A DNA stretch of 64,000 nt from an uncultured Pseudomonadales bacterium. GTDB lineage: Bacteria > Pseudomonadota > Gammaproteobacteria > Pseudomonadales > Azotimanducaceae. Positions 3,022 to 22,882 of the stretch are shown here, piece by piece. The notes below the pieces were generated by a model. It was not told the DNA's origin, did not search any database, and saw only the letters and a list, made by a program, of their open reading frames with translations. Numbering within the stretch: the stretch's first letter is position 1; each line of letters opens with the position of its first letter. A program made the position numbers and the translations under genes. The stretch covers positions 1,736,001-1,800,000 of the forward strand of contig OY282455.1 of NCBI GenBank assembly GCA_958296195.1, given 5' to 3'.

Positions 3022-5103
3022 TTATTCGGCTTGACGGAACCCGCGGCGTTGCCGGCCCGCTACGATTTCCGCATTCCAAGTCTGCCCGCCTTCAGTATAT
3101 TGGCCGGTGCGAATGAGAGCGAATTCATAGTCAGGAAGCGGGACGATCGCCAAGCACTTCCCATCCAGAATCAGCCCGTAATCCAGGAAGCTGAAATCCA
3201 AGTTGTCGAAGCCGTGACGGCGGCGATGCGTGGGCAGTTTCTGCAGATCGGTCGGAATGAAGTGCAGGAAGAATATCGCATTTGTGTCCTCTGCGGAACA
3301 GGGATTCCTAAAGTAGGCTAGCGCAGTTCCGTCGAGATAGACATCGAAGGCGGAGCGGTGCGTTGGCGGGCCGATGCTCCCAGAGACGATGGATTCATAC
3401 ACCTTCCGATACGGGTTCGATGGGGGCGCATAGCCCTTGTTGACTTTGAAAATGACTCCGTCCGCTAGATCCGCCACCGGCTCCAGTCCCTGCGACACGC
3501 GCATTCCGGCGGCGCCGTAGTCGTATAACCGGTTAATCCAAAAATGCTTGAACCAAACTATGTAACCGCCGTCCTGAAGCCAGGCCCAAGACCAGTTCCG
3601 CCCCGCCTTGGAGCTGCGGTTCTTCTTACCAACGCGCCTCTTGGGCAACATGCGGGTAGTTATGGGATCGTCATTGTTGAAATGCACAACCATGGGTAGG
3701 TTGCTGTAAACTGTGCCGGCTAAGGAATTTTCCCTGACGTATCGCAGCGTTTCGGAACCCGCCCAAGGCGGCGCGGCGTAGCCTCTGTTAGATTCGCCTA
3801 GGTTGGCTCCCACTATCTGTTGGATGTTCTTAATGGCCTGTCCACCCGTCCATAGCGCCAACGCCATCATCAGGACAGCGGTCAGCAGACTCGGCGTTCC
3901 AGTAAACCGCTCTACTATGGGCAGACCGCCAAGACCTCCCAGCAGCCTTTTCCGCCGCTCATAGATGAGAAGCCGATCCAGCATGAACGCGAAAACCAGC
4001 AGAAGCGGAATGTAAACAGGCGTCAAGTATCTTGGCCGAACGCTTGGGGCGATCTCGACCGACATCGCTGCAACAATAAGCAGGACGAGGTAAGTCAGCG
4101 CAAAGCCGCCAAAAGTAAAAAGGGGCCGCCACTCAAACTGGCGCCGCTCCCGACCGTGCCTTCCAACCGAAACCGGTCCAAACATCACCAGTAGCAAGGT
4201 CGCCACCGCCAACAGCCCAAGCGCGGCGCCATTAACAAGAAAATCCAAAGACGTCCATCTGCCCAAGGGCGGAATGTCAAAGGACATCCAGTTCCGTAGA
4301 GTCCCAAACACATCCGGCAATAGCGTCAGCAAAGTATGTTGCGTCGGAGCATTGTGTGCAGTGAGATCCCCAACGGTCAAATAGTTGCGCAGCAGCCATA
4401 CAACCATGGGCAGTGCCGTGATGAGCGACAAGACAGCAACGCGCCGTCCCCTTTGCAGCAGCGATGGACCCCGCTGCAGGAGAAGCAGCATGCCTATGAG
4501 TATCGGCAAGGCCACGCCTATGTACCTCACCTGCCAAGCTAGGGAACTGAAAGCAGCCGCCCAGAGCAGAGACCGAGCCTTGCCTTCGGTCAGGAACTTG
4601 TCGGTGCAGACGAGGGCGAGGGTCGCCAACAGAATGAAAACAGGTTCGGAAAGAACCCAAGAGGACCATTCCGTCAACGGCACCGATATGGCGACCGCGG
4701 TGCTGACCCAAGCCGCCACGAATAAGGATTCAACCCGCTGCCGCAGATATTGCCCCACAACAACTACAGTCAACCCGAAGACAGCGGCGTTAAGAGGGCC
4801 GGCAACTTCGAGAGGGTCGAGCACGCCAAAGCTGAGGGCGGCCAACAACAACGGGTAGAGGGGAGGCCACTTCGCGTAAATATATCCACTGAGGCTAAGG
4901 AAACCCTCCCCTTCCAGCAGGTTTCGGGCCACGGCTATGTAGTGTATGGAATCGTAGTGCAGCGCCGCACCATAGGTGACCTCCCGCGCCAACACCAAGG
5001 CAACACCCAACATCGACAGGAAGGCTATGTACAGCGTAAAGCCATCAAAGCGAAAACACGACTTTGCGGAACCAGCACCAGTCAAGTGCATCGAGTTCAG
5101 CAT
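3022..5103 (-). CDS. GT-C type polytopic glycosyltransferase with C-terminal two-Cys module
   Basis: 693 residues: about a dozen hydrophobic segments up to roughly residue 430, then a soluble C-terminal part. After the first membrane helix comes LHYDSIHYIAVARNLLEGEGF-like sequence (the family's first periplasmic loop, with Asp-Ser where GT39/ArnT enzymes usually show Asp-Glu), then WPPLYPLLLAA. This is a polyprenyl-phosphate-sugar-dependent GT-C (ArnT/PMT-like) signature. The donor and acceptor are unknown. Residues 586-680 form the module shared with five other membrane proteins of this window: FDVYL, PC, FFLH, GFDNLDF, GKC, LPDY, TGQY. It is the last gene of the eight-gene leftward operon and overlaps the preceding gene by 7 nt. 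It is a clear relative of the three tandem paralogues at 33.2-39.3 kb. Confidence 0.8.
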   Translation of the reverse strand: MLNSMHLTGAGSAKSCFRFDGFTLYIAFLSMLGVALVLAREVTYGAALHYDSIHYIAVARNLLEGEGFLSLSGYIYAKWPPLYPLLLAALSFGVLDPLEVAGPLNAAVFGLTVVVVGQYLRQRVESLFVAAWVSTAVAISVPLTEWSSWVLSEPVFILLATLALVCTDKFLTEGKARSLLWAAAFSSLAWQVRYIGVALPILIGMLLLLQRGPSLLQRGRRVAVLSLITALPMVVWLLRNYLTVGDLTAHNAPTQHTLLTLLPDVFGTLRNWMSFDIPPLGRWTSLDFLVNGAALGLLAVATLLLVMFGPVSVGRHGRERRQFEWRPLFTFGGFALTYLVLLIVAAMSVEIAPSVRPRYLTPVYIPLLLVFAFMLDRLLIYERRKRLLGGLGGLPIVERFTGTPSLLTAVLMMALALWTGGQAIKNIQQIVGANLGESNRGYAAPPWAGSETLRYVRENSLAGTVYSNLPMVVHFNNDDPITTRMLPKRRVGKKNRSSKAGRNWSWAWLQDGGYIVWFKHFWINRLYDYGAAGMRVSQGLEPVADLADGVIFKVNKGYAPPSNPYRKVYESIVSGSIGPPTHRSAFDVYLDGTALAYFRNPCSAEDTNAIFFLHFIPTDLQKLPTHRRRHGFDNLDFSFLDYGLILDGKCLAIVPLPDYEFALIRTGQYTEGGQTWNAEIVAGRQRRGFRQAE

Positions 5104-6659
5104 GGGGGTTCGTTCGGAATTTTGCCGGCTGCGCCGACTTGGTCCCCTGCCGACGCGGCGGCTCGATGCACACTAATCAAATTGCTGAAGTCAAAGAAAC
5201 CGTCAGGGAAAAACACGACTTCGGAAGCGATAACATGGTAGTCCTTACCCTCATGGATTTCAAACATCTTCGGGTGCTCTTCGGAAATAATGATCTTGGA
5301 CACCCGTTTTGAATTTTGGATGGCTATGGAGTAAGCCGGCCAAGTCCACGAGTCCGCATTGTGGAGCAGCCAACTACGCTCCACTTTGGAAAATTCACCT
5401 TCTATTTCGCAAGAGGATATGAAGGTCTTATTGGATTCTTTGACAATAAGCGCCGCCTGATTCTGAAATTCCCCCCAATACTTGGTGTTGCCCAATTGCC
5501 AAACGGAGCCGCCCGCCAATCCCACCGCCAAAATGAACTGCATCAAACTGCGCCATGCATGACCAATTTGCATCCTAGCCCACCAAAAGACAACGGCTAG
5601 GCCCATCCAGAACACCGAGCCGAAATTGACCAAGAAGCGATAGCTCTTCTCCGGCCAAGGTCTGATGTACCAAGGCTCATCAAATAGCACCACGGAAACC
5701 TGCAGTGCGAAGGTCGCGCAGACGATGGCAATTCCCCAGCACAACACAAGTACCGCCTTCGACAACCTCGGACTCCCAATGAATTTGCCCTGCAACCAAA
5801 TTCCGGCTAAGGACGCCACAAGCGCCACCCATGTGAGCAAACTTAAGCGGGTAGCGCCGCTTGCGTCCCACATCCTGTTGGGCTGCGCCCCCGTTAGATA
5901 GTTCAGAAACACCTGGGTCTGCTCGCCAACTGGATGACTCGCCTGCCAATACAGAACAAAGAGCGTATGCAGCAGGCTGGTCAGTCCTATAAGGCAAATG
6001 TGCAAGTCATTCTTCAGGACTGGGCGCCGTCGCGCTCGGATTAACCGTGCCGCCGCAGCGCAAAAAAGAACGACTCCCCACAACACCATGCCCTCATGCG
6101 CCCTAAAGAGCGCCAAAAGAACTACAACAACAACGGCGTGGTCAAGCACTCTCAACCTGAAATCCAGCAATACATAAGAGAGAAGCAGCCAACATAACGC
6201 CAACGTGGTGAATGCTTGGTTAAGGATGAAGAATTCCGATGGCATTGAGCAAGTGAGAACAGTGGCAACCACGAAAAAGAGAATCCGATAGTCCTTCGCT
6301 CTACGGCAATTTATATAGCACCCCAGGTAAATGATGACGGGTGTAAAGAAAAGCGCTGCTCCAAATAGCAGCTTAAGCGTCCGCAGATCCTCAACTCCAA
6401 CCTTGATCGCCATTGCCACAGGAAACTGATTTATGTAATTGACGAATAGGCGGATGTGTTTGGGGTCATCCACGAAGGGCCACCCAAAGTCCCTCGCCAA
6501 CAAGCCAGTGAAAAAGTGCGACCCGTCCGAATATAGGGCTCTTTCAGCCAGGACGGCGGCACACAGGTGCAACAGGTATAGACCAGCGGCGGCCGCCCCT
6601 AAACAGAGCAGTGCAAAAGGCAGAATATGAGTGCGGAAGCGACGTTGAAGAAAATTCAC
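5097..6659 (-). CDS. Polytopic membrane protein of the glycan operon, family not recognised
   Basis: 520 residues from a GTG at 6659 placed one base after the stop of the upstream gene. A longer in-frame extension to 7034 exists but lies wholly over that gene and reads as non-native sequence, so I reject it. About ten hydrophobic helices cover residues 10-420. The first periplasmic loop holds ALYSDGSHFFTGLLARDFGWPF, and a soluble tail of ~110 residues follows the last helix. The layout (loop after helix 1 with acidic residues, many helices, periplasmic tail) resembles GT-C glycosyltransferases or O-antigen-unit processing proteins, but no diagnostic motif is clear. It lacks the two-Cys module of its neighbour. 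Its position between the nucleotidyltransferase and the GT-C gene supports a role in the same surface glycan. Confidence 0.65.
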   Translation of the reverse strand: MNFLQRRFRTHILPFALLCLGAAAAGLYLLHLCAAVLAERALYSDGSHFFTGLLARDFGWPFVDDPKHIRLFVNYINQFPVAMAIKVGVEDLRTLKLLFGAALFFTPVIIYLGCYINCRRAKDYRILFFVVATVLTCSMPSEFFILNQAFTTLALCWLLLSYVLLDFRLRVLDHAVVVVVLLALFRAHEGMVLWGVVLFCAAAARLIRARRRPVLKNDLHICLIGLTSLLHTLFVLYWQASHPVGEQTQVFLNYLTGAQPNRMWDASGATRLSLLTWVALVASLAGIWLQGKFIGSPRLSKAVLVLCWGIAIVCATFALQVSVVLFDEPWYIRPWPEKSYRFLVNFGSVFWMGLAVVFWWARMQIGHAWRSLMQFILAVGLAGGSVWQLGNTKYWGEFQNQAALIVKESNKTFISSCEIEGEFSKVERSWLLHNADSWTWPAYSIAIQNSKRVSKIIISEEHPKMFEIHEGKDYHVIASEVVFFPDGFFDFSNLISVHRAAASAGDQVGAAGKIPNEPPC

Positions 6660-6660
6660 C

Positions 6661-7413
6661 TTAGCCCCGACCGCCGGATGCCAAATCCCCCTGAACAAAG
6701 GAGTCCAATTCCGCAGGTGTGCCCAAAGCAGCAACGCAGGATGCGGGCAAGACGGATATGGATATCCTGCCGCCCCGCCGAATGAGGTATTTATATAGAG
6801 GTGCCACATAACGTTCCCCCTTAGCCAATGCGGAGCCTTCCACCTCCATGTGTTCGTAGGCTTCCACGAAATCACCAGCCCTTGAGAACCAATACAAGCC
6901 GAGGGAGGCGTGGTCCGAAATGCGTTTCTTTTCCGCCACGTCAACCGCCCACCCGTCCTCCGCCAAGGCCACAAAACTCCAGTGATTTCCCGACAGCGGA
7001 GCGCAGGGGATCCACCCATGGGAACCGGCCTCAATCAGGCCTGGCGAAAGCCTATTGGGGTCAATGTGGGTGTCTATGTTGTAGATCAGCAAAGGCGCAT
7101 CCAGATGCCACAGGTCCCTGGACCGATAGGCGCTAGTCGCCTGCCCATCGGTTACCGCCGCCAACTCCCGAATTCGCGCATTGCCTATCGACAATCCAGA
7201 AAGACTCTTACGCAAAAAATCACCAGAGCGGTTTTCCCTTAGGCATACAAACACCAGCCGACTCTCGGGAGTGATGAAGTTGGCCAACGATGACAGAGAC
7301 CAATCAAACAAGCTTCGGCCCCTTGCTGAAATCTCATACTTGGGGACTTCGTAGCCGGCCTCCGCAAAGCGCTGGCCACGGCCTGCCATGGTAACCACAA
7401 TATTGACGTGCAT
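6661..7413 (-). CDS. RmlA/MobA-like nucleotidyltransferase, capsule/LPS precursor activation
   Basis: 250 residues. The N-terminus carries the sugar-nucleotidyltransferase signature MAGRGQRFAEAGYEVPK (GxGxRF...PK), and an Asp pair in YNIDTHIDP sits where the family binds metal and the activated product. Such enzymes join NTP and a phosphorylated sugar or polyol to give an NDP-activated precursor in the cytoplasm. It lies directly downstream of a HAD phosphatase and a kinase-fold protein (gaps of 5 nt or overlaps). The three could successively phosphorylate, dephosphorylate and activate an unusual precursor; similar trios occur in capsule loci. Which nucleotide and substrate are used is not visible. 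Confidence 0.78.
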   Translation of the reverse strand: MHVNIVVTMAGRGQRFAEAGYEVPKYEISARGRSLFDWSLSSLANFITPESRLVFVCLRENRSGDFLRKSLSGLSIGNARIRELAAVTDGQATSAYRSRDLWHLDAPLLIYNIDTHIDPNRLSPGLIEAGSHGWIPCAPLSGNHWSFVALAEDGWAVDVAEKKRISDHASLGLYWFSRAGDFVEAYEHMEVEGSALAKGERYVAPLYKYLIRRGGRISISVLPASCVAALGTPAELDSFVQGDLASGGRG

Positions 7414-7418
7414 AAACC

Positions 7419-7835
7419 CTATGACCCAATGCGATTGCCGCTGCGTTGCAACAGGTCATGGATTTCGTGCTCGGAGAGACGTAGAAATTCGTCCGGTCTG
7501 ATGGCCCGGTCATCAATGTAAAAACCCTTTTCTCGAGGCCAAGGCTTGCCGAAAATTATTTCGTCATAAGGCACATCCCATTTATCCAACCAACGGATCA
7601 GTTGCGGCGCCGTATGCTTATTGATCAGGCCAATGCTGCCGCTGTACGTCCTCATGTTGCGCGAGGAAAAGAGGCAAATTCTATACCCCTTACCCCAATA
7701 CTCCCGCAATTTCGCAAGCATGTCCTTTCTCGGCGCAAGATCATCGTAGGATTCACCTTCCTTCTTGAGATCGCACAGGGTGCCATCAACATCGACCACC
7801 AAAACCCCATCACCTGCATCATTGGCGCTAGACAT
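7419..7835 (-). CDS. HAD-superfamily phosphatase, capsule biosynthesis type
   Basis: 138 residues, the short cap-less HAD type. Motif I is VVDVDGTLCD near residue 15, motif II the Ser/Ser of CLFSSRNMRT near 55, followed by KPW with its lysine, and a terminal acidic motif FYIDDRAIRPDEF. All catalytic elements are present, so it should be active. Small HAD proteins of this kind sit in capsule and O-antigen loci and remove a phosphate from a precursor or act in its polymerisation. It overlaps the upstream kinase-like gene by 8 nt and precedes the nucleotidyltransferase by 5 nt, which argues for coupled translation and a shared pathway. The substrate is unknown. Confidence 0.8.
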   Translation of the reverse strand: MSSANDAGDGVLVVDVDGTLCDLKKEGESYDDLAPRKDMLAKLREYWGKGYRICLFSSRNMRTYSGSIGLINKHTAPQLIRWLDKWDVPYDEIIFGKPWPREKGFYIDDRAIRPDEFLRLSEHEIHDLLQRSGNRIGS

Positions 7836-9294
7836 TCTCGACCTCGTCCAATATCTCCTTCGCCCTCACAATGAAAGCCAAAATCTTATTGGGATGGTCC
7901 AAGTGCAGCGGAAGCATCGACAGAAACAAGGATGCCTCACATAGTCGAACGGCCGGTAGGCTGTATTGAGTGCCACCCAAGCGGGTTTTGAACATCTCCT
8001 GCAGCACGACGTGATTCGTCTGCCCAAGCAGACGCAGTTCCACAATATTGTCAGCAGCAAGACCAATATCAAAAAGGCCACTATTTATAAAATCATAGGC
8101 ACCCAAAATGCTATGGGAAATCTTGCCCAAGTCGTATAACGGATTTGTCCACAACTCGTCCTCCCCAATGGCCCCTCTAGGGTCAAGCAACATGAGTAGC
8201 TGGCTGTTCATGTCGTACAAAATGTTGGAAAAGCAGGGGTCACCGTGGCCGGTCACCATAAAGTCAAGCTCAATCCGCCGCTGGTTTTTTTTATACAGCC
8301 GCAAATAGCGGTCCAGTTGCTTGCGCACATCCCATTGCCCCTCGGGAAAATTTGCCGCCATTGCGTTGATTCTGCCCCCTCCCTCGGATTCAAGAAACCG
8401 CTCGACCCTACTCCTAGGCTTTTCCGCAAAAAGTTGATAGGCCGCGGCGCCGGCCTCTTCCCCACTGCACTTTCGATGAGCTCGCTCCCCAATAAATAGG
8501 AATAGGCGGTCTAGAAAGCGGGCGAAGCTGTCTTCGGTGAAAGCTCCATGCACCCACGGCAATGAAACATCAGCAACACGATAGCGGAGCATCTTGTACG
8601 ATGCCGTCTCGCCATCGTCCTGATAGTCAAATGGCTGCACCAGCCAAGGCTGCATTCTCTCATCAGTCAAGCCATAGAAGGAGTATTCGGCAAGGATTTT
8701 CGGCCGGTCTTTGGAGGATTTGGTGCAAAAATGAGAGTCAACCTGAATGCGATTGAAGTGCCGCGCTTCGGTGGCCCCCCCGGCAATCAGATTAAGGAAG
8801 TTGTCCAAGTTGGCAAGGTCAACCTGCTGAACCGACCGCAGGCGTTCACAGTCCTGCCAAGCTTCCTCCCAGTTGTGCAGAGGGCCTTTCTCAAACGCCG
8901 GCCATAGTTTCACTAGGTTATGAGCATCACGGAAAAATGCTATAAGGGGCTTGTACAGGCTGTCGGTAAAACTCTCCCTCGCATAGGGCAGCTTTTCGAC
9001 TAGCTGATGCAGGCGGCCGTAGTCGTGAAAGGCGGCGCGGCCCGAGACGACAAGCATTGCGGTGTTTTCACTAATAGTCTCAAGCATCTGGCGAAATTGC
9101 GCGATGTCTCCATCATCACGCAGGCGAATGACCGGAGACGCCCATTCCGGCATGGACGCTTGGAAGTGGCTGAACAGCCGCTTGCGCTGGAAAATGATGT
9201 CTCCATAGCGACGGTTGCCGACAAAACTCCGCAGGCGATTGGCCACCATTTCCCGATCGTCCACGACGATTAGAATGTCCTCATTCATGCGCAT
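7828..9294 (-). CDS. APH/choline-kinase-fold phosphotransferase linked to glycan precursor
   Basis: 488 residues. The C-terminal two thirds contain the kinase signature of the aminoglycoside-phosphotransferase fold: GHGDPCFSNILYD with H350 and D352 as catalytic-loop residues, then LLDPRG as the Mg-binding DxG-like motif, then YDLGKISHS. The first ~150 residues are an additional domain I do not recognise, perhaps nucleotide-sugar-like or regulatory. In polysaccharide loci such proteins phosphorylate a sugar, polyol or similar precursor that the neighbouring nucleotidyltransferase then activates. The start at 9294 is preceded by AGGGGAAGG at a suitable distance; a second in-frame ATG lies two codons later. 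Confidence 0.72.
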   Translation of the reverse strand: MRMNEDILIVVDDREMVANRLRSFVGNRRYGDIIFQRKRLFSHFQASMPEWASPVIRLRDDGDIAQFRQMLETISENTAMLVVSGRAAFHDYGRLHQLVEKLPYARESFTDSLYKPLIAFFRDAHNLVKLWPAFEKGPLHNWEEAWQDCERLRSVQQVDLANLDNFLNLIAGGATEARHFNRIQVDSHFCTKSSKDRPKILAEYSFYGLTDERMQPWLVQPFDYQDDGETASYKMLRYRVADVSLPWVHGAFTEDSFARFLDRLFLFIGERAHRKCSGEEAGAAAYQLFAEKPRSRVERFLESEGGGRINAMAANFPEGQWDVRKQLDRYLRLYKKNQRRIELDFMVTGHGDPCFSNILYDMNSQLLMLLDPRGAIGEDELWTNPLYDLGKISHSILGAYDFINSGLFDIGLAADNIVELRLLGQTNHVVLQEMFKTRLGGTQYSLPAVRLCEASLFLSMLPLHLDHPNKILAFIVRAKEILDEVENV

Positions 9295-9297
9295 GCC

Positions 9298-10170
9298 CTA
9301 AGACCTTCCCCTAACGAAGATTAGCAGAATCAACATCATCGCTAGAGTTCCCGCAATCAAGGCACCCGACCTGTAGGTTTCAAAGACGTGCGCGAATTGA
9401 TGCCCCGACAAGGACAAACCCGTAAAAAACGCATCGGAAAACATGGCTATCAGATGGGTGCTTTGATACTCGGCGATTTCAAGAAGTTTCGCAAAGGCCA
9501 GTATCTCCATTGCCCATATAAAGACGGACAACAGAAGAAACCCGGTCAACCGCCCGGTAATGGACCGGTGTATGTCCAACTCCAACCGGAAGATCACATC
9601 GCTCATTCGGAGCAAAGCCACGTCTCGACGCCGGTGCCCAGTCAGCACCAAATGACGGTTAAGGTAATGCAGAATTTTGCAGAGGGAAAACAAGCAAAGC
9701 AGGCCAAGAGACAGACCCAAAACCACCAAACTCAGCACCCCTTGGGGAATGCCTGAGATGTCCCCCTGCAAAAGCGTCAATCCGGCTATGAGGACAGCAA
9801 GCACGACGAGGTCGCCAAATCGTTCGATTATCCATACGGCGAGGGCTTTCTGCCGATAGTCGTAAACATAGTAGAACGATGCAAGGCGCAGGACTTCGCC
9901 AATCTTGAACGGCAGGAGGCTGCTGGGAAAGGCGGTTAGCGCATGGGCGAAGATCAGCGGCAACGCCTGGTGCCGGTCATCCAGCGTAAGCAACGCAAGG
10001 CGGAGCATGCGGAATAGGTGCGAACAGAGGTAAAGTGCGCAAGCGCCCAAGACGGGCAGCAGCGCTGCTTCTCTTACCGCCAGCAAGACGTCTTCTTGGC
10101 GCAGAACCACCCAACCCCCAACAACGCTGACCAGCAGGATAAGGTAAGTTCTTGGGACACTGCGGGTCAT
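9298..10170 (-). CDS. Flippase-like integral membrane protein (LPG synthase TM / UPF0104 family)
   Basis: 290 residues with about eight hydrophobic helices. The family signature is visible in the second quarter: SHLFRMLRLALL, then FPSSLLPFKIGEVLRLASFYY, with the conserved Pro-x-K/R-x-GE-x-xR pattern of the lysylphosphatidylglycerol-synthase membrane domain family (PF03706). Members act as lipid flippases or as partners of glycosyltransferases. Here it starts inside the stop codon of the upstream GT2 gene (ATGA), so the two are translationally coupled. A role in moving a lipid-linked sugar across the inner membrane for the ligase and GT-C enzymes of this operon is a reasonable inference but not shown. 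Confidence 0.8.
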   Translation of the reverse strand: MTRSVPRTYLILLVSVVGGWVVLRQEDVLLAVREAALLPVLGACALYLCSHLFRMLRLALLTLDDRHQALPLIFAHALTAFPSSLLPFKIGEVLRLASFYYVYDYRQKALAVWIIERFGDLVVLAVLIAGLTLLQGDISGIPQGVLSLVVLGLSLGLLCLFSLCKILHYLNRHLVLTGHRRRDVALLRMSDVIFRLELDIHRSITGRLTGFLLLSVFIWAMEILAFAKLLEIAEYQSTHLIAMFSDAFFTGLSLSGHQFAHVFETYRSGALIAGTLAMMLILLIFVRGRS

Positions 10171-11105
10171 TTGCCACCCTCAACGATTGGCTCCTTAGCC
10201 ACAACGGTAGCACCTGAATACGCCTCAACGGGAGCTGTTCTTAGGTCCTTGGCGAGAAAGGCGCTGCGCCCAACAAAAAAGCGAGCCAGCAGCCAGAGAA
10301 CACGGACTGCCTGCCGCATCAGCTTGACATTGGACAGTTGGTCCTCCTCCCGCCAGCTAATTGGGAAGAAACGCACCCGTTGGCGGCGCTGATAGCTTGC
10401 CAACAACATAGCATAGTTAAAGGTCAGATCGTCAGGAAAGCACTGATGGTGAAAATCCGAAAAGGCGGCTAGGCGATAGAGGTTCAGGCCAGATCCGAGG
10501 TCGTAAACAATATGGCCAGTAGCAGCGCTGAACAACAGATTGTAGAATCGATTTCCGATGTTGCGGACCCAAGAATAGCCCTTGCGCACGCTGCCCGCTT
10601 GAAAACGGGCGCCTAGGAGGCAATCCACCTGCTGGTGAGCCCCTTCTTCAAGGTGGGGAATGAGGTCCCCAATGTCTGCTTGATCATCCCCGTGGAGCAC
10701 CACGAGATGGTCGAAGCCTCGGTCGATGGCGTAACGGAAGGCGACCTTGTGGGAGCCGCCCAATCCGTAGTTGCAATCATTAAGCCATGCAACGAATTGG
10801 CATTGTCTGAGGCGCTGCCGCCCCCTGTTGATGGCGGCGTCCAAGGTGTCGTCCGGGGAGCGATTGTCCACTATTAGCACGGTGTCCACCCAGCTTTGCA
10901 CCCTGTCATCAAACTGGTCGATGACCCGCAACACCTGCTGTTCGCACCGGTAGGTGGGAATGAAAACCAATATCCGAGGCTTACGCTCTTCCGTAGCGCC
11001 GCTGGGCATCTGGCCGCTTTGTCGCTCTAGCTTTTTCGGCCTTCCAACCAATCTCTCTACGGCCGCGGGAGCTTTGCGACAGCGGTGCCGGGTGGGAGGG
11101 ATCAT
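10167..11105 (-). CDS. GT2 family glycosyltransferase, polyprenyl-phosphate type
   Basis: 312 residues. After a basic 40-residue N-terminal extension the GT-A fold starts with ILVFIPTYRCE. The family motifs IVDNRSPDDT and VLHGDDQAD (DxD equivalent) and a LGARFQ-like stretch follow, as in DPM1/GtrB-like enzymes. There is no clear C-terminal helix pair, so it is likely a peripheral enzyme at the inner membrane. It probably transfers sugar from a nucleotide donor to a polyprenyl phosphate or lipid-linked glycan. The start ATG overlaps the stop of the giant ligase gene (ATGA) and has an AGGAGA ribosome site inside that gene, so translation should be coupled. It overlaps the flippase-like gene in the same way. 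Confidence 0.85.
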   Translation of the reverse strand: MIPPTRHRCRKAPAAVERLVGRPKKLERQSGQMPSGATEERKPRILVFIPTYRCEQQVLRVIDQFDDRVQSWVDTVLIVDNRSPDDTLDAAINRGRQRLRQCQFVAWLNDCNYGLGGSHKVAFRYAIDRGFDHLVVLHGDDQADIGDLIPHLEEGAHQQVDCLLGARFQAGSVRKGYSWVRNIGNRFYNLLFSAATGHIVYDLGSGLNLYRLAAFSDFHHQCFPDDLTFNYAMLLASYQRRQRVRFFPISWREEDQLSNVKLMRQAVRVLWLLARFFVGRSAFLAKDLRTAPVEAYSGATVVAKEPIVEGGK

Positions 11106-14100
11106 GCGGGCTTCTCCTGCCGGCCGCGGTCCAACTCACCTATGCCCATGCCAATCAATATCCAGGAGCAGATGCCCACGCTCAGCAAATTCTGCAACAG
11201 GTAAACCTCAAAAATGTTTTGAATGATGACCATTACGATGCAGGTGGCGACAAACCGCTGAACCGGCGTGACCTCCACGCCTGTTCGCGTACGCACGCTG
11301 AATATAAGGGATGCGCACAACAGCGCCAACAGCGCCAGGCCAACGATGCCCGTTTGCAGCCCAAATTGCAGGAATAGGTTGTGGGCGGATTTGGCGACGC
11401 CCTTCCGTTCAGTAGGGTCAACAAGCTTGTTCAGCGCCTGGATGGCCGCGCCAATACCGGCGGCGGTGCCTTTAGCCTCTCTCCCGCAGACCGGCAGATC
11501 AAGCGTGTATTGCAAGTTGGAGCCGAACCGCTGCACCGAATCTGGCAAGCAGCCGGTGAAGTCGTTGCCAACCAGCTTCAGCACCCAAAGGGAGTCTATC
11601 CGACCCAACTCCGGAGGTATGGCCCCACTTAGGTGATTGCCCCCTAACCAAAGTTCCTCAAGGTTGACGAGATGCTGCAGTTGGGGCGGAATGGCCCCGG
11701 TCAACGCGTTGCCTTGCAAGGCCAGCTCCCGCAAGTTGGTCAACCAGCCGAGTTCCGGTGGTATCGCGCCAGTGAGTTGATTGTCGTTGAGGCGCAGCCA
11801 ACTAAGTTGGTCCAGCACCCCAAGTTCCGCTGGAATGCGACCGTTCAACCCCGCCCCTGACAAATTGACCGCAACCACCCGAGGCGGTGCGCCGGCCACG
11901 GTCACGCCCTGCCAAGACGTGATGGGTTCGCTGTAGCTCCAGTTCAATTTGGCCTCGCCAGCCAGAATGTCGCGCACGGCCATTAGAACGGCGGCGTCGT
12001 CAAGCAGAGGAGGTTTGCCCCAGGGTGAAGGGTCACAAGCGAAATCCAACTCCTGATTTGCATCCCCAAGGCCCCTGAGCGCTGGGGGCAGGCAGCCGAT
12101 GAATTCGTTGCCGCCAAGATGCAGAAAGACAAGCTTGTCGAGCAGCGCCAATTCCGACGGTACCAACCCGCCCAATCGGTTGTCTGCTAGGCGCAACTCC
12201 TCGAGTTCAGCGAGTTTTGTCAGCTCCATCGGAATGCTGCCGGTGAGTTCGTTGCGATCCAAGGCCAATTTCCGCAATGCGACCAGCCCCCCCAATTCCG
12301 GGGGAATTGCTCCGCTCAACCGATTGTTGCTGAGGCGCAGCAGTCTGAGGTTCCGTAAATCTCCCAACTGCGCGGGAATCGAGCCGGTAAGCCGATTGCC
12401 GCTTAGCTGCAGCGAGGCAAGCCGGTCCAATTTCGCCAAGTTTGCCGGAATGCGCCCGTCCAGCCCCGCGGAGGGAAGGTTCAAGGCCATGATGCGCACG
12501 GGTTCGCCGCCCGCCCAAACGCCCCGCCAAGCACTGATCGGCAGAGCCTCGCTCCAATTCAAATCGGCGCTGCCGGCCAATTCGTCTCTGGCGGCCAACA
12601 AGGTGGCGCAATCCATGCGCAAACCGGCAGCCTCAGCGCCAAGTTCACTGCACGTTAAGCCATCCTTCAATGCCTGGAGGGGTTTGTTGGTCTGGTCCTT
12701 TGGCGCACTTTCGGTTGCATTGCTGTACGAACGGGCCATCGAGTGAGCTAGGCGGTTGCCGCTAAGCCGAAGATGCCTTAGCTTGTCCAAATTCTCCAAT
12801 GCGGCGGGGATGACGCCAGTTAGGGCATTGCCGTTGAGCATCAATTCCTGCAGATTGGCAAGCCCGCCCAACGCCGCGGGAATTGGGCCTGTGAGCGCAT
12901 TGCGGCTAAGGCGCAGGGAAACTAGTTGATCCAAACCGCCAAGCTGCGCTGGAACGGTGCCCCGCAACCCCATGCGCACCAAGTCCAAGGCGATGACCCG
13001 CGGCGGTTCGCCGCCCAATGCAACGCCTCTCCATAGGCCAATCGGTGTCGAGGCATTCCAGTTCAGCGCAACTCCGCCCGTCAAGACGTCCCGTGCCTCC
13101 AGCAGGATGGCGCAATCCCTGAGCAAGCCGTTGGAGGGCGGGCGGGCGGAAGCACGATCGCACAGCTGAACCATGCCGCCCTCGCCGTTGACGATTCCAC
13201 TTGCCAAAACCCCAAGGTCTAGGGCCTCCATGTTTGGGGCATCGCTTTTTTCGAGGTATGACGAGGAGGGTACAGCGCCACCGAATGCATTGCCGTCCAG
13301 CCGCAGGTGGGGCAATGTTCCCATAGCGGTCGGAACAACGCCGCTGAGGCGATTGTGGTCTAGGTGCAGACTTTGCAAGCTCTCGAGGTCGCCCAGTTCG
13401 ACTGGAATCGGGCCGGTCAACGAATTGTGGCGAAGCGATAGGTGAGTGATCTTTTCAAGCCTGCCCAATTCCGCCGGGATCGGGCCAGTCAACGAGTTGT
13501 AACCAAGATATAAATGTTCAAGGTTTCCGAGATCGCCCAACTCGGCCGGGACCGGGCCAGTCAAAGAGTTGCTTCCCATGTACAGGTATTTGAGATTCTT
13601 CAGCTTGCCCAGTTCGGCCGGAATGGAGCCGTGCAGATTGTTTCCTCCCAAGTAGAGCGCCACCAACCGTTCAAGCCGACCGAGCGCAGCCGGAATGCGA
13701 CCGTCCAACAACGGCTTCTTCCAAGCAAGGTCCAACAACACCACCCTCTGCGGTTCGCCCCCAAGCACAACGCCATGCCAAGCGTTCATGGGCGCGGCCT
13801 CGCTCCAGTTCAGAGCAGCTGACCCGGCCAGCAGGTCACGGACAGCCAACAAATTGGCGCAGTCGTCCTGCAGGCCAAAGTTGCGCAACGGCACCAACGG
13901 ACAAGTGCGGCGACGGTTAAGGTCGCTGTCGGCCACCTGCCGCAAAGCTTCGGGAATGGGACCGGAGAAGTCGTTGCCGCCGAGGCGCAACAGGGACAGT
14001 TGGCCCAACGCTCCCAACTGCGCCGGCACGGGGCCGCTCAGCCGGTTGCCCCGCAAACGCAACTCGCGAAGGTTCCCAAGGTCGCCAATCTGCGGCGGAA

Positions 14101-17100
14101 CAGCGCCACTCAGGGCGTTGCGCTCCAGCGACAGCACCCGCAAGCCGGCCAACCCGCCGAGTTCCGGCGGCAACTGTCCGAGCAGCCCCTTCCCGTTTAG
14201 GTTCAACTCCCGAACACGCGGTGGGGCGCCGCCAAGCGCAACGCCCTCCCAAGCGCCTATGGGCATAGCCCTGTGCCAGTTCAGTTTGACGCTGCCGGCC
14301 AGGGCGTCCCGCACGTTCAGCAAAAGGGAGCAGTCCCCGAGCAGGGCGGCACCCGCCCCGGCGTGCGGCACACAGTACAGATCGTCGTCAAGGTCGTGGT
14401 CAGCCACCTCGCGCAATGCCGCCGGTGCGGCACCGGCGAAGGCGTTGCCGGCAAGGCGCAGCTTGCTCAGCAAGGGTAGCCCGCCCAACTCTTGCGGAAT
14501 GACCCCCGTCAGGGCATTATTCTGTAACTTTAGTTCGCGCAGGCGCCTCAAGCCACCCAGTTCCGGCGGAATGCTCCCCTTGAGGGCGTTCCAGTTGAGA
14601 TTCAGCTTTTCGAGCCGATCCAGCGCCGCCAGTTCGGCCGGCAGCCGTCCTAGCAGGCCCCGCTTCGGCAACTCCAAACCGATGACGCGCAGCGGCGCAC
14701 CGGCTATTAGAACACCGTCCCACAAACCCAAGGGCGTCGTTCGGCGCCAGTTCAGCCCTGCGCCCCCAGCCAGGGCGTCCCGAGCGGCCAATAACGTCTC
14801 GCAGTCCTTAAGCAGGCCGGGGCCAACCTCCGGCAGCGGCAGGCAGAACAGCTCTTTGCGCAAGGCGTCATCGTCCCAGATGCGCCGGTCGGCCCCCAAG
14901 CGAAGCTCGCCTAGGTTCCCAAGACCGCCCAACTCCGCCGGGATAGGGCCACTGAGGGCGTTGTCGGCGAGACGCAGCGACTCGAGACGTCCCAAGTCCG
15001 CAAGCTGCGGCGGAATTCGCCCGCGCAGACCTGCGCCCTCCAGGTCCAAGCCGACCACCCGCGGCGGTGCGCCACCCAGAATCACCCCCCGCCAAGCGCC
15101 TATGGGAGCGCCCTTCCGCCAATTCAACTCCGCCTCGCCGGCCAGTGCATCGCGCACCTCCAAAAGCAGGGCGCAATCTTCCAGCAGGCCCGCGCCAACC
15201 CCTAGGCCGCCGCCGGAGGAGGGCAGGCAGAACAAGTCGGGCGCATGGCCGCCGTCGAGCGGCGGCGGCCGCGGGGTCAGCCCGTCAAAGCTCCTGTCCG
15301 TGTAGCTAAGCGCCTCCAGCTTGGGCAGCGCCAGCAACTCCGGCGGCAGGCCTCCGACTAGGCGGTTGTTCTCTAGGGAAAGAAACGCCAGCTCGCCGAG
15401 GCGCGCCAACTCCGCCGGAACGGGGCCGGTGAATTGGTTGTTGGCAAGGTGCAACAACACAAGCCGGTCCAAGCCGCCAAGCTCCGCGGGAATGCGCCCG
15501 CTCAAGCCCGAGTCCTCCAAGGCTAGGGCGACGACGCGCAGCGGCTCGCCGCCAAGAATCACACCCCGCCATGCGACGAGCTTCTCACGCGGGAACCAGT
15601 TCAAGCGGTCAGCACCGGCCATGGATCTCCGAACCGACAGCAGAATGGTGCAGTCCCGCAGCAGCCCGGGGTTGAAACGGTCGGCGGGCAGCCCCGCCGG
15701 AGGTAGGCAAAACAAATCATCGTTGCGGACGCCGCGCAGCGCCGGCGGCAATGCGCCGGTGAACATGTTGCCGTCCAAGACCAGCGTCTCCAAGTTGGGC
15801 ATTGTCCCTAGGGCCGCCGGAACGACGCCGGTCAGGCGGTTGTTCGATAGCCAAAGACGCTTAAGCTGGCGAAGGTTGCTCAGCTGCGGCGGAATGGGGC
15901 CGGTGAGCGCGTTGTAGTCCAACACCAGGTTGTGCAGGTTGGCCAGGCGGCCGAGCTGCGGCGGAATGGGACCAGTCAGACCATTGCGGTCAAGAATCAA
16001 TTCCTTAAGCCCATCCAAGGCCCCCAACTGCTCCGGCAGCGAACCGCCTAGCCCCACTTGGCGCAGGCGCAGCTCGACCACCCGCAGCGGCGAACCGCCC
16101 AAAACCACCCCCTGCCAAGACGGAATGGGCGTCGCCGGCCCCCAATTCAGCTTGCCGGTGGGATCCAACGCACCCCGCGCCGCCAGCAAGACCGAGCAGT
16201 CCTTCTGCAACTCCGCACCAACGGTCCCAGGCAGGCACAGCAGGCCTCGGTCAAGATCATGCTCCTCAACTCGCCGCAGCGCCTCGGGGAAGGGACCTTC
16301 CAATTCGTTGCCGGCGAGCATTAGCTTGCGCAGGTTGGGTAGTTCGCCCAACTCGGCGGGAACGGCCCCGCTAAGTCGGTTGCCGTCCAGATACAGATAC
16401 CTGAGTTTCTTGAGCAACCCGAGCTCCGGAGGGATGGGGCCACTTAAGTCGTTATAGGCAAGCGACAGGGTTTCCAGATTGAACAGCCTGCTAAGTTCCC
16501 GGGGGATGGGGCCAGAGAAGGCGTTGACGGAAAGGTTCAGCGCGGTGAGTTGGTCCAGTCGCGCAATTTCCCTTGGAATCCCACCGCTAAGCGAGGTCCG
16601 CCAAGACAGGTCCAACTCAGTCACGCGGGGCGGCGCTCCGCCCAAGGTGACGCCCCGCCAAGAAGCAATGGGGTACGGGTAGTCCCAACTCCAAAGGTCC
16701 CCGACGCCTCCCGACAGGGCGCTGCGCAGGCCAATCAAAATGTTGCAGTCCGTCACCAATCCGGGATTGGCGTCATTCAGGCAGGCGTGGCCCCGCGACG
16801 CCGCCGCAATGACAGGCGACCTTTCCGCCTCTTGTTCTTGAAGGGGCGCGTCGGCACCGGTCGGCGGCGGGCCGCTCCCATCGGCGAGGCCAATGTCCGG
16901 ACCCTCCAGCCGCGCACTGGGCAGCGCGGTAATGACCGCGCCCGGCCCCTCGCCCAGCCAAGGCGATTCCGCCATGCCGGCGAGGGCCGCGCCCCAAAGC
17001 GTTCGCCGCCCGGTCTCGGCCCTGCCTCCGGTGTAGTCCTGAAAGACGCTGTCCACATAGCTTGCCGCGCCAATGGGCAGCGGCGCCATGAGGACCGCCA

Positions 17101-17875
17101 CGATGAGCCAGACCACCGCCGCGACCATGCCGACCAAAAGGCCGGTGCCCCTCCAGCCGCGCAGGAGATAGCGCCCTCCCCAATAGAGGGGATAGGCCAG
17201 CAGCAGCCCGACGACCAGCGCACGATGGCCGAAAACGATGCCATTGGCCACAAAAAGCAGGAAGAAGGCGTGTACCCACCAGTGCTGACGCCTTCCGTCT
17301 TCGCCGCGCACAACCAGCACTAGGCCGACGATCAACAGCAAGTAGCCCAGGATGGCGGCAAGGGTGTGGGCGTTGATGCTGGAGCCAGTGGCGTACAGCG
17401 GCAACAGCAGCAACAGCGCCAGCGCCAGCACGGGAATGGCGCCCTTGGAACGCACGATGGCCGGCCCGTTTTGGTGGCAGAAAAGAAAGACCAGGCCGGC
17501 CAGTAGAATCGCCGCCCAATGGCGGACGCCCTGCAGGCTGAACGCAAAGAGCAGGCCGATGCCGTAAAGGACCAACAGGGCGGCAAAGCAGAGCAGGACC
17601 GGCCAAGCCCCCGCTTGAACGCCCCTACGCAGCAGGGACAGGCCCATCAGAAGCGCCACTGCGGCAAAGACTGCGTCCGCAACGCCGCCGGGAAAGTGGA
17701 TGCGCAGCAGGTTCGCAAGCAGCAGCAGGGCCAGCAGCACGAGGCTGTCGCCGGGAAACGCCATGCGCTCCGACAGCCGCCGCAAGGCGAGTGCGCCGCG
17801 CCCCAACCAGCCCGGACCGGACGCTGGGCCGCTTTGCGCCAAACCGCCAACGCGGGACAGCCAATTTTGGCTCAT
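11102..17875 (-). CDS. O-antigen ligase-like protein with giant plant-type LRR array in its periplasmic loop
   Basis: 2,257 residues; usual O-antigen ligases/polymerases have about 400-450. Residues 1-320 hold about ten membrane helices, ending with the Wzy_C/WaaL-type signature GRRTLWGAALAGMAESPWLG plus EGPGAV. Residues about 363-2135 are leucine-rich repeats. The ligase fold then resumes with AHNLFLQFGLQTGIVGLALL (His2165 in the place of the conserved periplasmic His of the family) and about three final helices. The LRR part therefore sits where ligases have their large periplasmic loop. By eye there are ten modules, each opening with a plant LRRNT_2-like cap (Cys, LLxxRDxLAG, LNW, WxGV, RVxxLxL) and followed by 3-7 LRRs of the LxGxIPxELGxL type, about 47 in all. 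It is first in the operon, with a GGAG ribosome site. Confidence 0.88.
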   Translation of the reverse strand: MSQNWLSRVGGLAQSGPASGPGWLGRGALALRRLSERMAFPGDSLVLLALLLLANLLRIHFPGGVADAVFAAVALLMGLSLLRRGVQAGAWPVLLCFAALLVLYGIGLLFAFSLQGVRHWAAILLAGLVFLFCHQNGPAIVRSKGAIPVLALALLLLLPLYATGSSINAHTLAAILGYLLLIVGLVLVVRGEDGRRQHWWVHAFFLLFVANGIVFGHRALVVGLLLAYPLYWGGRYLLRGWRGTGLLVGMVAAVVWLIVAVLMAPLPIGAASYVDSVFQDYTGGRAETGRRTLWGAALAGMAESPWLGEGPGAVITALPSARLEGPDIGLADGSGPPPTGADAPLQEQEAERSPVIAAASRGHACLNDANPGLVTDCNILIGLRSALSGGVGDLWSWDYPYPIASWRGVTLGGAPPRVTELDLSWRTSLSGGIPREIARLDQLTALNLSVNAFSGPIPRELSRLFNLETLSLAYNDLSGPIPPELGLLKKLRYLYLDGNRLSGAVPAELGELPNLRKLMLAGNELEGPFPEALRRVEEHDLDRGLLCLPGTVGAELQKDCSVLLAARGALDPTGKLNWGPATPIPSWQGVVLGGSPLRVVELRLRQVGLGGSLPEQLGALDGLKELILDRNGLTGPIPPQLGRLANLHNLVLDYNALTGPIPPQLSNLRQLKRLWLSNNRLTGVVPAALGTMPNLETLVLDGNMFTGALPPALRGVRNDDLFCLPPAGLPADRFNPGLLRDCTILLSVRRSMAGADRLNWFPREKLVAWRGVILGGEPLRVVALALEDSGLSGRIPAELGGLDRLVLLHLANNQFTGPVPAELARLGELAFLSLENNRLVGGLPPELLALPKLEALSYTDRSFDGLTPRPPPLDGGHAPDLFCLPSSGGGLGVGAGLLEDCALLLEVRDALAGEAELNWRKGAPIGAWRGVILGGAPPRVVGLDLEGAGLRGRIPPQLADLGRLESLRLADNALSGPIPAELGGLGNLGELRLGADRRIWDDDALRKELFCLPLPEVGPGLLKDCETLLAARDALAGGAGLNWRRTTPLGLWDGVLIAGAPLRVIGLELPKRGLLGRLPAELAALDRLEKLNLNWNALKGSIPPELGGLRRLRELKLQNNALTGVIPQELGGLPLLSKLRLAGNAFAGAAPAALREVADHDLDDDLYCVPHAGAGAALLGDCSLLLNVRDALAGSVKLNWHRAMPIGAWEGVALGGAPPRVRELNLNGKGLLGQLPPELGGLAGLRVLSLERNALSGAVPPQIGDLGNLRELRLRGNRLSGPVPAQLGALGQLSLLRLGGNDFSGPIPEALRQVADSDLNRRRTCPLVPLRNFGLQDDCANLLAVRDLLAGSAALNWSEAAPMNAWHGVVLGGEPQRVVLLDLAWKKPLLDGRIPAALGRLERLVALYLGGNNLHGSIPAELGKLKNLKYLYMGSNSLTGPVPAELGDLGNLEHLYLGYNSLTGPIPAELGRLEKITHLSLRHNSLTGPIPVELGDLESLQSLHLDHNRLSGVVPTAMGTLPHLRLDGNAFGGAVPSSSYLEKSDAPNMEALDLGVLASGIVNGEGGMVQLCDRASARPPSNGLLRDCAILLEARDVLTGGVALNWNASTPIGLWRGVALGGEPPRVIALDLVRMGLRGTVPAQLGGLDQLVSLRLSRNALTGPIPAALGGLANLQELMLNGNALTGVIPAALENLDKLRHLRLSGNRLAHSMARSYSNATESAPKDQTNKPLQALKDGLTCSELGAEAAGLRMDCATLLAARDELAGSADLNWSEALPISAWRGVWAGGEPVRIMALNLPSAGLDGRIPANLAKLDRLASLQLSGNRLTGSIPAQLGDLRNLRLLRLSNNRLSGAIPPELGGLVALRKLALDRNELTGSIPMELTKLAELEELRLADNRLGGLVPSELALLDKLVFLHLGGNEFIGCLPPALRGLGDANQELDFACDPSPWGKPPLLDDAAVLMAVRDILAGEAKLNWSYSEPITSWQGVTVAGAPPRVVAVNLSGAGLNGRIPAELGVLDQLSWLRLNDNQLTGAIPPELGWLTNLRELALQGNALTGAIPPQLQHLVNLEELWLGGNHLSGAIPPELGRIDSLWVLKLVGNDFTGCLPDSVQRFGSNLQYTLDLPVCGREAKGTAAGIGAAIQALNKLVDPTERKGVAKSAHNLFLQFGLQTGIVGLALLALLCASLIFSVRTRTGVEVTPVQRFVATCIVMVIIQNIFEVYLLQNLLSVGICSWILIGMGIGELDRGRQEKPA
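11471..16789 (-). repeat. Ten-module LRR-encoding DNA repeat inside the ligase gene
   Basis: About 5.3 kb of in-frame degenerate repeats. The WxGV cap motif of successive modules (protein order) lies near 16653, 16109, 15573, 15090, 14716, 14242, 13771, 13025, 12520 and 11906. Module lengths differ: the seventh carries about seven LRRs, the fourth only about three. Internal LRR units are close to 72 nt (24 residues), and several neighbouring units in 13.3-13.6 kb are nearly identical. This fits growth by unequal crossing-over and suggests copy-number variation between strains. The frame stays open throughout, so the array is under selection as protein. Confidence 0.85.
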
Positions 17876-18008: not shown

Positions 18009-18118
18009 CGGCCATGCGTGAACATGGCCAAGCCACCCGCAGTTTGCCCGTCGAGGCAATGCGTAGGCGCCTTGGCGCGAACCGCCACGATAGTTGTCAA
18101 ATGAAGGGGAGTAATTTG

Positions 18119-22542: not shown

Positions 22543-22882
22543 TAAGGCTCCCTTCGCATTCCGCGACGGGTGACCGCCGACACTCCCTTGCCCGCAGTGT
22601 ACCCGCTTGATGAGCCATTCTAAGAAGCCTAGTTCGGGCGATTGATCTGTTATGCGACTTGGCTTTGCAATTTCGCGCCAAAAGGCGCGGAGCTGACGGT
22701 TCGCGCCAAAGCGCACGGAGCTGACCGTTCGCGCCTCCGTGTCCGCCGCGCCGTCGCAAGTCGCAAACAAAGGTGGGCTGCATGACGTCCAAGGCGGTCC
22801 ATTCGGCAATAGGACTACTGCAAGGCTGCGCAAACCAGTAAACTCAGCCTCCTCTGGGCTCACCTAGCAGAACGGCGCATCA
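22543..22882. promoter_or_regulatory. Divergent control region with 28-bp direct repeats
   Basis: 340 bases without a supported gene, between the dehydrogenase and AraC-family genes. TTCGCGCC occurs three times at an exact 28 bp spacing (22672, 22700, 22728), each of the first two continuing with a similar unit containing GGAGCTGAC. Downstream, TCGCAA occurs twice (22754-22759 and 22761-22766), inside GTCGCAAACA shared with the region at 1282-1291. Direct repeats at constant spacing are typical of AraC-family operators. The likely user is the GbdR-like protein encoded next door; that assignment is inference. No clear -35/-10 pair was found. Confidence 0.5.

What the first reader, a model, noticed from the sequence alone, without database searches (positions are those of the whole stretch)
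11102..17875. O-antigen ligase whose periplasmic loop carries a ~1,770-residue plant-type LRR array
Seen: a Wzy_C/WaaL-like membrane core split at the position of the large periplasmic loop (GRRTLWG...EGPG before, AHNLFLQFGLQTG after) by ten modules of LRRNT_2-like caps plus about 47 LxGxIP-type repeats. Known: WaaL-type loops contain the catalytic surface, and plant-type LRRs bind peptides or glycans. Inference: the array is a built-in recognition or acceptor-presenting scaffold for ligation of O-antigen or another glycan, or is displayed as an outward-facing binding surface. I know of no described ligase with this architecture.
Basis: partly seen in the sequence, partly recalled or inferred. 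Interest (0 to 1): 0.92.

Follow-up and report, generated by a model that had tools for sequence, protein, structure and literature searches.

The report
Glycan ligase with long LRR loop
A bacterial membrane enzyme of the family that attaches sugar chains carries, inside one loop, a long chain of plant-like binding modules, and related bacteria show the same thing in a second, different enzyme of that family, so it is a real and recurring design whose purpose is unknown.

Summary
One uninterrupted 2257-aa gene (11102-17875, minus strand) holds a Wzy_C/WaaL-type membrane core, split in its large presumed periplasmic loop by ten capped plant-type LRR modules (42 LRR units). It is no artefact: the genome is a single contig, a paralogue in it has 7 modules, and orthologues in two single-contig genomes of another genus have 17 each. 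The array lies between the equivalents of E. coli WaaL R288 and H338. In three further genomes of the family a second, very different Wzy_C core carries homologous modules elsewhere in the same loop (between R215 and R288 equivalents): 12 apparently intact genes and two pieces; 9 of the 12 stand in clusters with GT4 glycosyltransferase genes. Two array-less cousins carry another ~130-aa insert at that slot. The array is under purifying selection. Best reading: a periplasmic recognition arm that selects or presents acceptor or glycan to a Wzy_C glycan transferase. O-antigen ligase, polymerase or protein glycosyltransferase remains open. Display outside the cell is unlikely, because both ends are anchored in the inner membrane.

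The parts
16940..17875 (-). N-terminal membrane core (aa 1-312): 8 hydropathy peaks (a ninth segment near aa 223-245 is my reading), ends in block R290/R291-TLWGAALAGMAESPWLGEGPG
   Evidence: Wzy_C profile 19-105; 43% and 39% identical to two homologues. Scanned alone by hmmscan this part gives no Pfam family
17222..17224 (-). R218, equivalent by motif and spacing to E. coli WaaL R215
   Evidence: R215-R288 spacing 73; here 72-73
17003..17008 (-). R290/R291; R290 is the invariant one, equivalent to E. coli WaaL R288
11519..16795 (-). array of ten capped plant-type LRR modules (aa 361-2119; module starts aa 361, 542, 724, 883, 1007, 1164, 1321, 1570, 1738, 1943)
   Evidence: plant receptor ectodomains are the best PDB sequence matches; modules 5-6 model pLDDT 88.2
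13916..14857 (-). modules 5 and 6 (aa 1007-1320), the part modelled by AlphaFold2
   Evidence: each module = cap helix, strands, LRR arc; pTM 0.56, so the angle between modules is uncertain
11105..11518 (-). C-terminal core (aa 2120-2257): linker, catalytic-type motif HNLFLQFGLQTGIVG, three hydrophobic segments
   Evidence: Wzy_C 25.2 bits, profile 102-148; fits H[NSQ]X9GXX[GTY] (the motif itself is recalled)
11381..11383 (-). H2165, equivalent to E. coli WaaL H338 (catalytic His)
10167..11105 (-). GT2 glycosyltransferase, start overlaps the ligase stop
9298..10170 (-). LPG_synthase_TM (flippase-like membrane protein), overlaps the GT2 gene
7828..9294 (-). 488-aa protein without Pfam match, same strand, 3 bases downstream
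5097..7034 (-). 645-aa protein, hydrophobic by eye, no Pfam match; start codon unsure
3022..5103 (-). 693-aa protein, PMT match below cut-off (14.9 of 22.7 bits), with a C-terminal domain also seen near two other ligases of this kind

Best explanation
It is an intact inner-membrane glycan transferase of the WaaL/Wzy_C superfamily whose large periplasmic loop (TM9-TM10 by analogy with WaaL) has become the attachment site of a chain of ten capped plant-type LRR modules. Shown: one gene, a split Wzy_C core with the R...R...H signature kept, the array between R288- and H338-equivalents, the same design in four type-A genes and in a second core, and purifying selection. Inferred from topology: the array lies in the periplasm, held at both ends. 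Inferred as mechanism: the LRR faces bind a partner (acceptor such as lipid A-core or a secreted protein, or the nascent glycan) and bring it to the R218/R290/H2165 site, so the array sets which acceptor-glycan pair is joined. Module number, and paired GT genes in type B, would then diversify specificity among paralogues.
For: Split core: consecutive Wzy_C halves in p1, p2 and p3 (p3 whole 32.9 bits, over the 31.7 cut-off). WaaL-like motif order and spacing; hydropathy peaks 8 before and 3 after the array in p1, against 9 and 3 in E. coli WaaL. Recurrence: p2, 7 modules; p3 and p4, 17 each; type B in G001, G241, G044, where the array sits before the R288-like block (profile break about 69-82 against about 102-122 in type A). 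The slot holds another insert in two array-less cousins. Periplasmic signs: 9 of 10 p1 caps have at least 2 Cys just before the cap Trp; LptD present. Selection p3/p4: array omega 0.37, LRR framework 0.07, concave x 0.66, other x 0.54. Context: the window operon has a GT2 and a flippase-like gene; 9 of 12 intact type-B ligases lie in clusters with nine GT4 genes 59-89% alike. LRRs of this class in plants bind peptides and other ligands (recalled).
Against: No binding partner, no activity, no core structure. p1 itself is below the Wzy_C cut-off (18.3 of 31.7 bits), its N half alone gives no Pfam match, and the N half of one type-B protein (G241a) gives no Wzy_C match; neither the A1 profile (N cores of p1, p2, p3) nor the p1 C part has a credible PDB match. 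p3 and p4 show only 2 hydropathy peaks after the array, and p1 and p4 also have peaks near threshold inside the array. Concave positions evolve only slightly faster than other variable positions, untested for significance. In the type-B pair the core is not more conserved than the array (omega N core 0.65, array 0.42, C core 1.25 on 145 codons with dS 0.06). The window locus has no GT4; p3's neighbours differ from p1's; three intact type-B genes have no GT4 recognised nearby. Module number is the same in p3 and p4, so no rapid variation is seen there.
Confidence: 0.5

Rival explanations
1. Envelope tether or assembly scaffold: the array does not choose substrate but ties the enzyme to peptidoglycan, the outer membrane, the Lpt bridge or other glycan enzymes, concentrating the pathway at one place.
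For: Arrays of 10 to 17 modules are long compared with a periplasm of about 20-25 nm (recalled, no length was computed); the array starts and ends in the inner membrane.
Against: Module number varies from 1-2 to 17 among homologues (counts by a pattern that misses some caps), which fits poorly with spanning a fixed distance; the loop chosen is the one at the active site, in two cores.
Confidence: 0.2
2. Protein O-oligosaccharyltransferase: the enzyme glycosylates protein, and the LRR array either selects the protein acceptor or is itself the acceptor.
For: The C parts of a type-B protein and of an array-less cousin match TfpM (O-linking OTase) and PEP_O_lig_1 weakly (16-28 bits, far below cut-offs 600 and 188). 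OTases share the Wzy_C domain with WaaL (PMC12645811, passages).
Against: p1 matches none of these. Ala/Pro/Ser/Thr/Gly-rich linkers, similar to PglL-type acceptor regions (PMC12645811, passages), are absent from p1 and from all 14 type-B sequences by the cut-off used, and present in p2 (1), p3 (3) and p4 (3); this speaks against self-glycosylation of p1.
Confidence: 0.15
3. Passenger: LRR cassettes from secreted proteins of these LRR-rich genomes landed in a tolerant loop and persist without a role tied to catalysis.
For: Other LRR proteins with related, weaker caps occur in the same family; a different insert occupies the same slot in two cousins.
Against: Framework omega 0.07 and 17 modules kept in both p3 and p4; two insertion positions in two cores.
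Confidence: 0.1
4. Surface-exposed receptor or adhesin, anchored by a dead ligase core.
For: LRRs are typical binding domains; the window's genome has other LRR proteins and a giant Calx-beta-like protein.
Against: Both ends of the array are in the inner membrane and an outer membrane is present (LptD); R, R and H are kept in 4 of 4 type-A proteins.
Confidence: 0.04
5. Assembly artefact joining two loci.
For: None found.
Against: Single-contig genome; four type-A genes in three genomes and 12 intact type-B genes in three more; no long near-identical repeats in the gene.
Confidence: 0.01

Closest known systems
WaaL-type O-antigen ligases (CAZy GT121; E. coli K-12 WaaL, C. metallidurans WaaL 7TPG/7TPJ)
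   Same: Arg-Arg-His signature at matching R-R spacing, similar hydropathy layout, Wzy_C halves
   Different: R288 to H338 is 50 residues in E. coli and R290 to H2165 is 1875 here; no sequence similarity to solved ligases was detected
WadA, bimodular O-antigen ligase (five genera including Brucella and Mesorhizobium)
   Same: A ligase core with an extra functional domain (PMC9938171, passages; PMC10920833, passages and its O-antigen ligase section)
   Different: There the extra domain is an N-terminal cytoplasmic glycosyltransferase (GT25), not an insertion in the periplasmic loop and not LRR
Protein O-oligosaccharyltransferases (PglL, PglS, TfpO, TfpM)
   Same: Share the Wzy_C domain; PglL/PglS carry further domains PglL_A and Wzy_C_2 predicted to face the periplasm (PMC12645811, passages)
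   Different: Those domains are not LRR and none was matched in p1
Plant LRR receptor ectodomains (GSO1, MIK2, FLS2, ERL1, SERK1)
   Same: LxGxIP repeats plus N-terminal cap; for p1 modules the alignment to GSO1 runs from the cap's W.GV into the LRRs, for a type-B protein SERK1 aligns from near its start
   Different: Bacterial, in short capped modules strung together, inside a membrane enzyme loop
Xanthomonas XopAC / XopAE / XopL LRR proteins
   Same: LRR similarity
   Different: LRR similarity only, far below family cut-offs (278 of 600 bits for XopAE, 257 of 450 for XopAC)

Membership tests
Wzy_C (PF04932) / O-antigen ligase superfamily | score over Pfam's curated cut-off (31.7 bits) | tested here: inconclusive
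   p1 18.3 and p2 26.6 bits, not met; homologue p3 32.9 bits, met; type-B G001a 36.2 bits, met, four other type-B proteins 24.6-30.8, not met
Wzy_C (PF04932) / O-antigen ligase superfamily | profile matched in order along one chain | tested here: met
   p1 halves 19-105 and 102-148 on either side of the array; p3 1-104 and 118-146, p2 2-109 and 122-146 (13.6 bits, weak), type-B G001a 3-69 and 82-149
WaaL-type ligase (GT121) | Arg (R215), Arg (R288), His (H338) signature | tested here: met
   R218, R290/291, H2165 in p1, equivalents in 4 of 4 type-A proteins; that these residues matter in WaaL is recalled, with support in passages of PMC12800693 and PMC9938171
WaaL-type ligase (GT121) | 12 TM with the large loop between TM9 and TM10 | tested here: inconclusive
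   Hydropathy only: p1 8 peaks before and 3 after the array plus one near threshold inside it; p2 8 and 3, p3 8 and 2, p4 8 and 2 with two inside; E. coli WaaL 9 and 3. No topology predictor was available
WaaL-type ligase (GT121) | GT-C fold of the core | not tested
WaaL-type ligase (GT121) | transfers Und-PP glycan to lipid A-core | not testable with these tools
   needs biochemistry
Protein O-oligosaccharyltransferase (PglL/PglS/TfpM) | PglL_A / Wzy_C_2 domains or an NCBIfam equivalog match | tested here: not met
   No such domain or match in p1; weak C-part matches to TfpM in one type-B protein and one cousin
Plant-specific class LRR with N-terminal cap | LxxLxLxxNxLxGxIPxxLGxLxx repeats preceded by cap with W.GV and Cys | tested here: met
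   42 units, 10 caps, 0 units in shuffles; PDB sequence matches to plant receptors; AF2 model of modules 5-6. No fold comparison could be run
Xop type III effectors | NCBIfam cut-off | tested here: not met
   278 of 600, 257 of 450 and 143 of 500 bits

The most novel reading that the evidence does not exclude
These bacteria have repeatedly turned the active-site loop of glycan ligases into a socket for exchangeable recognition arms. Capped plant-type LRR chains of 1-17 modules (or another insert) decide which acceptor receives which glycan, and tandem ligase-plus-GT4 clusters make this a diversifying, repertoire-like system for envelope glycans.
Probability: 0.25. Interest if true: 0.92.

Novelty: new variant of a known kind. 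Interest (0 to 1): 0.78.

Why it matters
How WaaL-type enzymes choose acceptors is, to my knowledge, poorly understood. Searches for papers that pair O-antigen ligase or Wzy_C with leucine-rich repeats found none of relevance in an open-licence library. A family of natural ligases that differ mainly in a modular binding arm would give a direct way to study acceptor choice in glycan transfer. It would also be an unusual bacterial use of plant-receptor-like LRR modules: inside the loop of an inner-membrane enzyme rather than in secreted or injected proteins.

Tried and rejected
Assembly artefact: rejected (recurrence in single-contig genomes). Rapidly varying array by recombination: not seen; p1 has no long near-identical DNA repeats, and p3 and p4 have 17 modules each and align over 3401 codons. 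Loss from short-read genomes as the reason why only single-contig genomes have it: the modules look too diverged to collapse, and strong cap hits (over 60 bits) came only from the six genomes, so shared habitat or sequencing project is as likely; unresolved. Self-glycosylation through low-complexity linkers: linkers absent in p1 and type B. Mobile element carriage: no match of the N core in the plasmid or phage collections. An Ig-like reading of the other slot insert rests on recall only: Pfam and PDB sequence searches found nothing for it, and among 521 long ORFs of the fetched loci it occurs only in the two cousins (one cousin is held twice). Type A and type B as one recent family: hhalign sees no similarity between their N cores, though both profiles are shallow (Neff under 2), so this is weak. 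The genome-contig scan gave two Bacteroidetes loci that match only in the array region at 25-30% identity; not examined further. Taxonomy: best 16S match in the plasmid collection only 85.3% over 68% of its length, a gammaproteobacterial record; no name could be given. Sponge-symbiont papers were searched as a guess about habitat (listings only) and not used.
Full report
WHAT IS THERE. The ORF 11102-17875 on the minus strand codes for 2257 aa without a stop. Residues 1-312 are a membrane core that ends in GRRTLWGAALAGMAESPWLGEGPG; residues about 361-2119 are ten capped LRR modules; residues 2120-2257 contain AHNLFLQFGLQTGIVG and three hydrophobic segments. Pfam sees LRR_8 at 270 bits and Wzy_C in two stretches at 18.3 bits, below its cut-off of 31.7. 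The six-frame search places the two Wzy_C halves at profile 19-105 and 102-148, on either side of the array. The genome (G000) is one contig of 4.31 Mb and encodes LptD. Its 16S is nearest, within a plasmid collection, to a gammaproteobacterial record at 85.3% over 68% of its length.

SAME DESIGN ELSEWHERE (TYPE A). The same genome holds a paralogue (p2) of 1749 aa with 7 caps. Two single-contig genomes of another genus of the same family hold orthologues (p3, p4) of 3434 and 3406 aa with 17 caps each. The N cores of p2 and p3 are 43% and 39% identical to that of p1, and both flanking motifs are present in all four proteins. With one N core as query, 2 of 97 relatives matched; with the N-core profile, 3 of 206 genomes of the family and 1 of 369 in a class sample, the window's own. 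The first modules correspond across type A and so, mostly, do the last ones (best matches, where p4 is an exception for p1's last module; the tree groups the four last modules, weakly, 84/41), while the number between them differs. p3 as a whole scores 32.9 bits for Wzy_C, over the cut-off; p2 26.6.

A SECOND CORE WITH THE SAME MODULES (TYPE B). A search with the cap profile hit 18 of 206 family genomes. Of the 12 genomes with only weaker hits I fetched the locus of 8; they hold other large LRR proteins, some with metallopeptidase-like C termini (by eye; no family search was run). The strong multi-module hits outside G000, G046 and G226 lie in G001 (same genus), G241 and G044. There the modules sit in 14 ORFs: 12 look intact (783-2214 aa) and two are probably pieces of one gene, about 26 kb apart, one running into a transposase-like sequence (by eye). 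These have another Wzy_C core: in G001a the N part matches profile 3-69 and the C part 82-149; in the other four type-B proteins scanned the C part begins at 81-83, and the N part of one of them (G241a) scanned alone gave no Wzy_C match. The two N cores show no similarity by hhalign, on shallow profiles. In type B the array comes before the block around FEKAMEAPVFGHG, and the block-to-His distance stays 33-34 in the 11 of 14 ORFs where my pattern found both, close to the 38 of an ordinary Wzy_C protein of G000; in type A the array lies between block and His. In E. coli numbering, type A is inserted between R288 and H338, type B between R215 and R288. That these residues matter in WaaL is recalled; passages of PMC12800693 and PMC9938171 support the Arg/His role in WaaL-like enzymes. 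So arrays of one stock appear to have been fitted into two cores at two places, by two events or by one event and a transfer.

THE LOOP AS A SLOT. The type-B N-core profile also finds array-less cousins: 546 aa in G000 itself and 505 aa in G241, which carry a different insert of about 130 aa at the type-B site. Pfam found only Wzy_C in these proteins and the PDB sequence search nothing credible for the insert of one of them. A Wzy_C survey found a match in 126 of 206 family genomes; in the rows printed the matches run through most of the profile in one stretch, and the table of places was cut off. LRR-split ligases were seen only in the six genomes named. All six are single-contig assemblies: 6 of 7 single-contig and 0 of 119 other genomes among the 126 (my count; Fisher p 1.4e-9). 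This is confounded by project and habitat, which I cannot see. The cap profile at E 1e-8 found no genome outside the family: 2 of 332 in an order sample (both in this family) and 1 of 340 in a class sample, the window's own.

SELECTION. p3 and p4 align over 3401 codons at 80.4% identity. Omega (Nei-Gojobori) is 0.40 for the N core, 0.37 for the array, 0.21 for the C core; inside 60 repeats 0.07 for framework positions, 0.66 for concave x and 0.54 for other x positions. The type-B pair G241d/G044f gives array 0.42, framework 0.21, concave 0.74, other 0.55, but N core 0.65 and C core 1.25 (145 codons, dS 0.06). So the LRR fold is maintained; the excess at concave positions is small and untested; in type B the core looks no more constrained than the array.

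CONTEXT. In the window the gene is first in a same-strand run with a GT2 (overlapping), an LPG_synthase_TM protein and larger proteins without firm Pfam matches; four of these genes have GC 53-57% against 61.7% for the window. The paralogue p2 lies beside a polysaccharide flippase and GT genes. In G001, G241 and G044, nine intact type-B ligases are interleaved with nine GT4 genes, three and three per genome, the GT4 proteins 59-89% alike (Pfam was run on the three of G001 only). The other three intact type-B genes stand alone, with no GT4 recognised near them in the ORF lists (no family search was run there). p3 has other neighbours, including an LPG_synthase_TM gene some 4 kb away.

STRUCTURE. 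AlphaFold2 on modules 5-6, with the window's own modules as alignment, gave pLDDT 88.2 and pTM 0.56: two LRR arcs each with a cap helix, relative placement uncertain. By sequence the best PDB matches are plant receptor ectodomains, and the GSO1 alignment starts at the cap's W.GV. The core and the fold search could not be run.

HOW IT MAY WORK. The array is fixed at both ends by inner-membrane helices, so in a cell with an outer membrane it should stay in the periplasm; paired cysteines in most caps fit that (9 of 10 in p1, 6 of 7 in p2, 13 of 17 in p3 and in p4). It is inserted beside the catalytic-type His in type A and on the other side of the adjacent conserved block in type B. A recognition arm that presents acceptor or glycan is my first choice (0.5), a tether or scaffold second (0.2), an OTase-related role third (0.15).

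NOVELTY. Known ligases with extra domains carry them elsewhere (WadA, N-terminal: PMC9938171 passages, PMC10920833 O-antigen ligase section; PglL/PglS, PglL_A and Wzy_C_2: PMC12645811 passages). Searches joining O-antigen ligase or Wzy_C with leucine-rich repeat gave 0, 1 (a tomato RNA paper) and 0 papers, in an open-licence library only. Both building blocks are known; the architecture appears new.

Noticed in passing
window 18014-20110(+) and 3022-5103(-); also L101 near 19089(-), L066 near 7626(+): A C-terminal domain (FFLH...DLP..RR.HGFDNLDF.F...) recurs near ligases of both types: 4 hits in 3 of 38 long loci scanned (two in the window, L101, L066); other ligase loci had no hit with the pattern used, so the link is only suggestive.
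   Followed up: partly
L098:11174-11827(+): Shrunken type-B ligase remnant (217 aa) without array, between two GT4 genes in G241: deletion inside the cluster.
   Followed up: no
L102:2381-5272(-) and L103:11508-15014(-): A type-B array gene of G044 apparently in two pieces about 26 kb apart, one piece running into a transposase-like sequence (by eye).
   Followed up: no
L049 and L050 (G000:C1:3666493-3689769): A 7758-aa protein, by eye with Calx-beta-like and Fn3-like repeats and an LRR part near its end, of a different LRR type.
   Followed up: no
family survey: LRR ligases occur in 6 of 7 single-contig genomes and 0 of 119 others among Wzy_C-bearing genomes of the family; cause (habitat, project or assembly) unknown.
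   Followed up: partly
window 1440-2993(+), 20107-22863(-), 24507-27152(+): Trimethylamine methyltransferase (MTTB), a DAO plus GCV_T protein of dimethylglycine-dehydrogenase type, and a subtilase with Calx-beta and P-domain.
   Followed up: no
L055:2943-3575(+): Another Wzy_C match of G000 has a TAG stop inside, possibly a decayed ligase.
   Followed up: no
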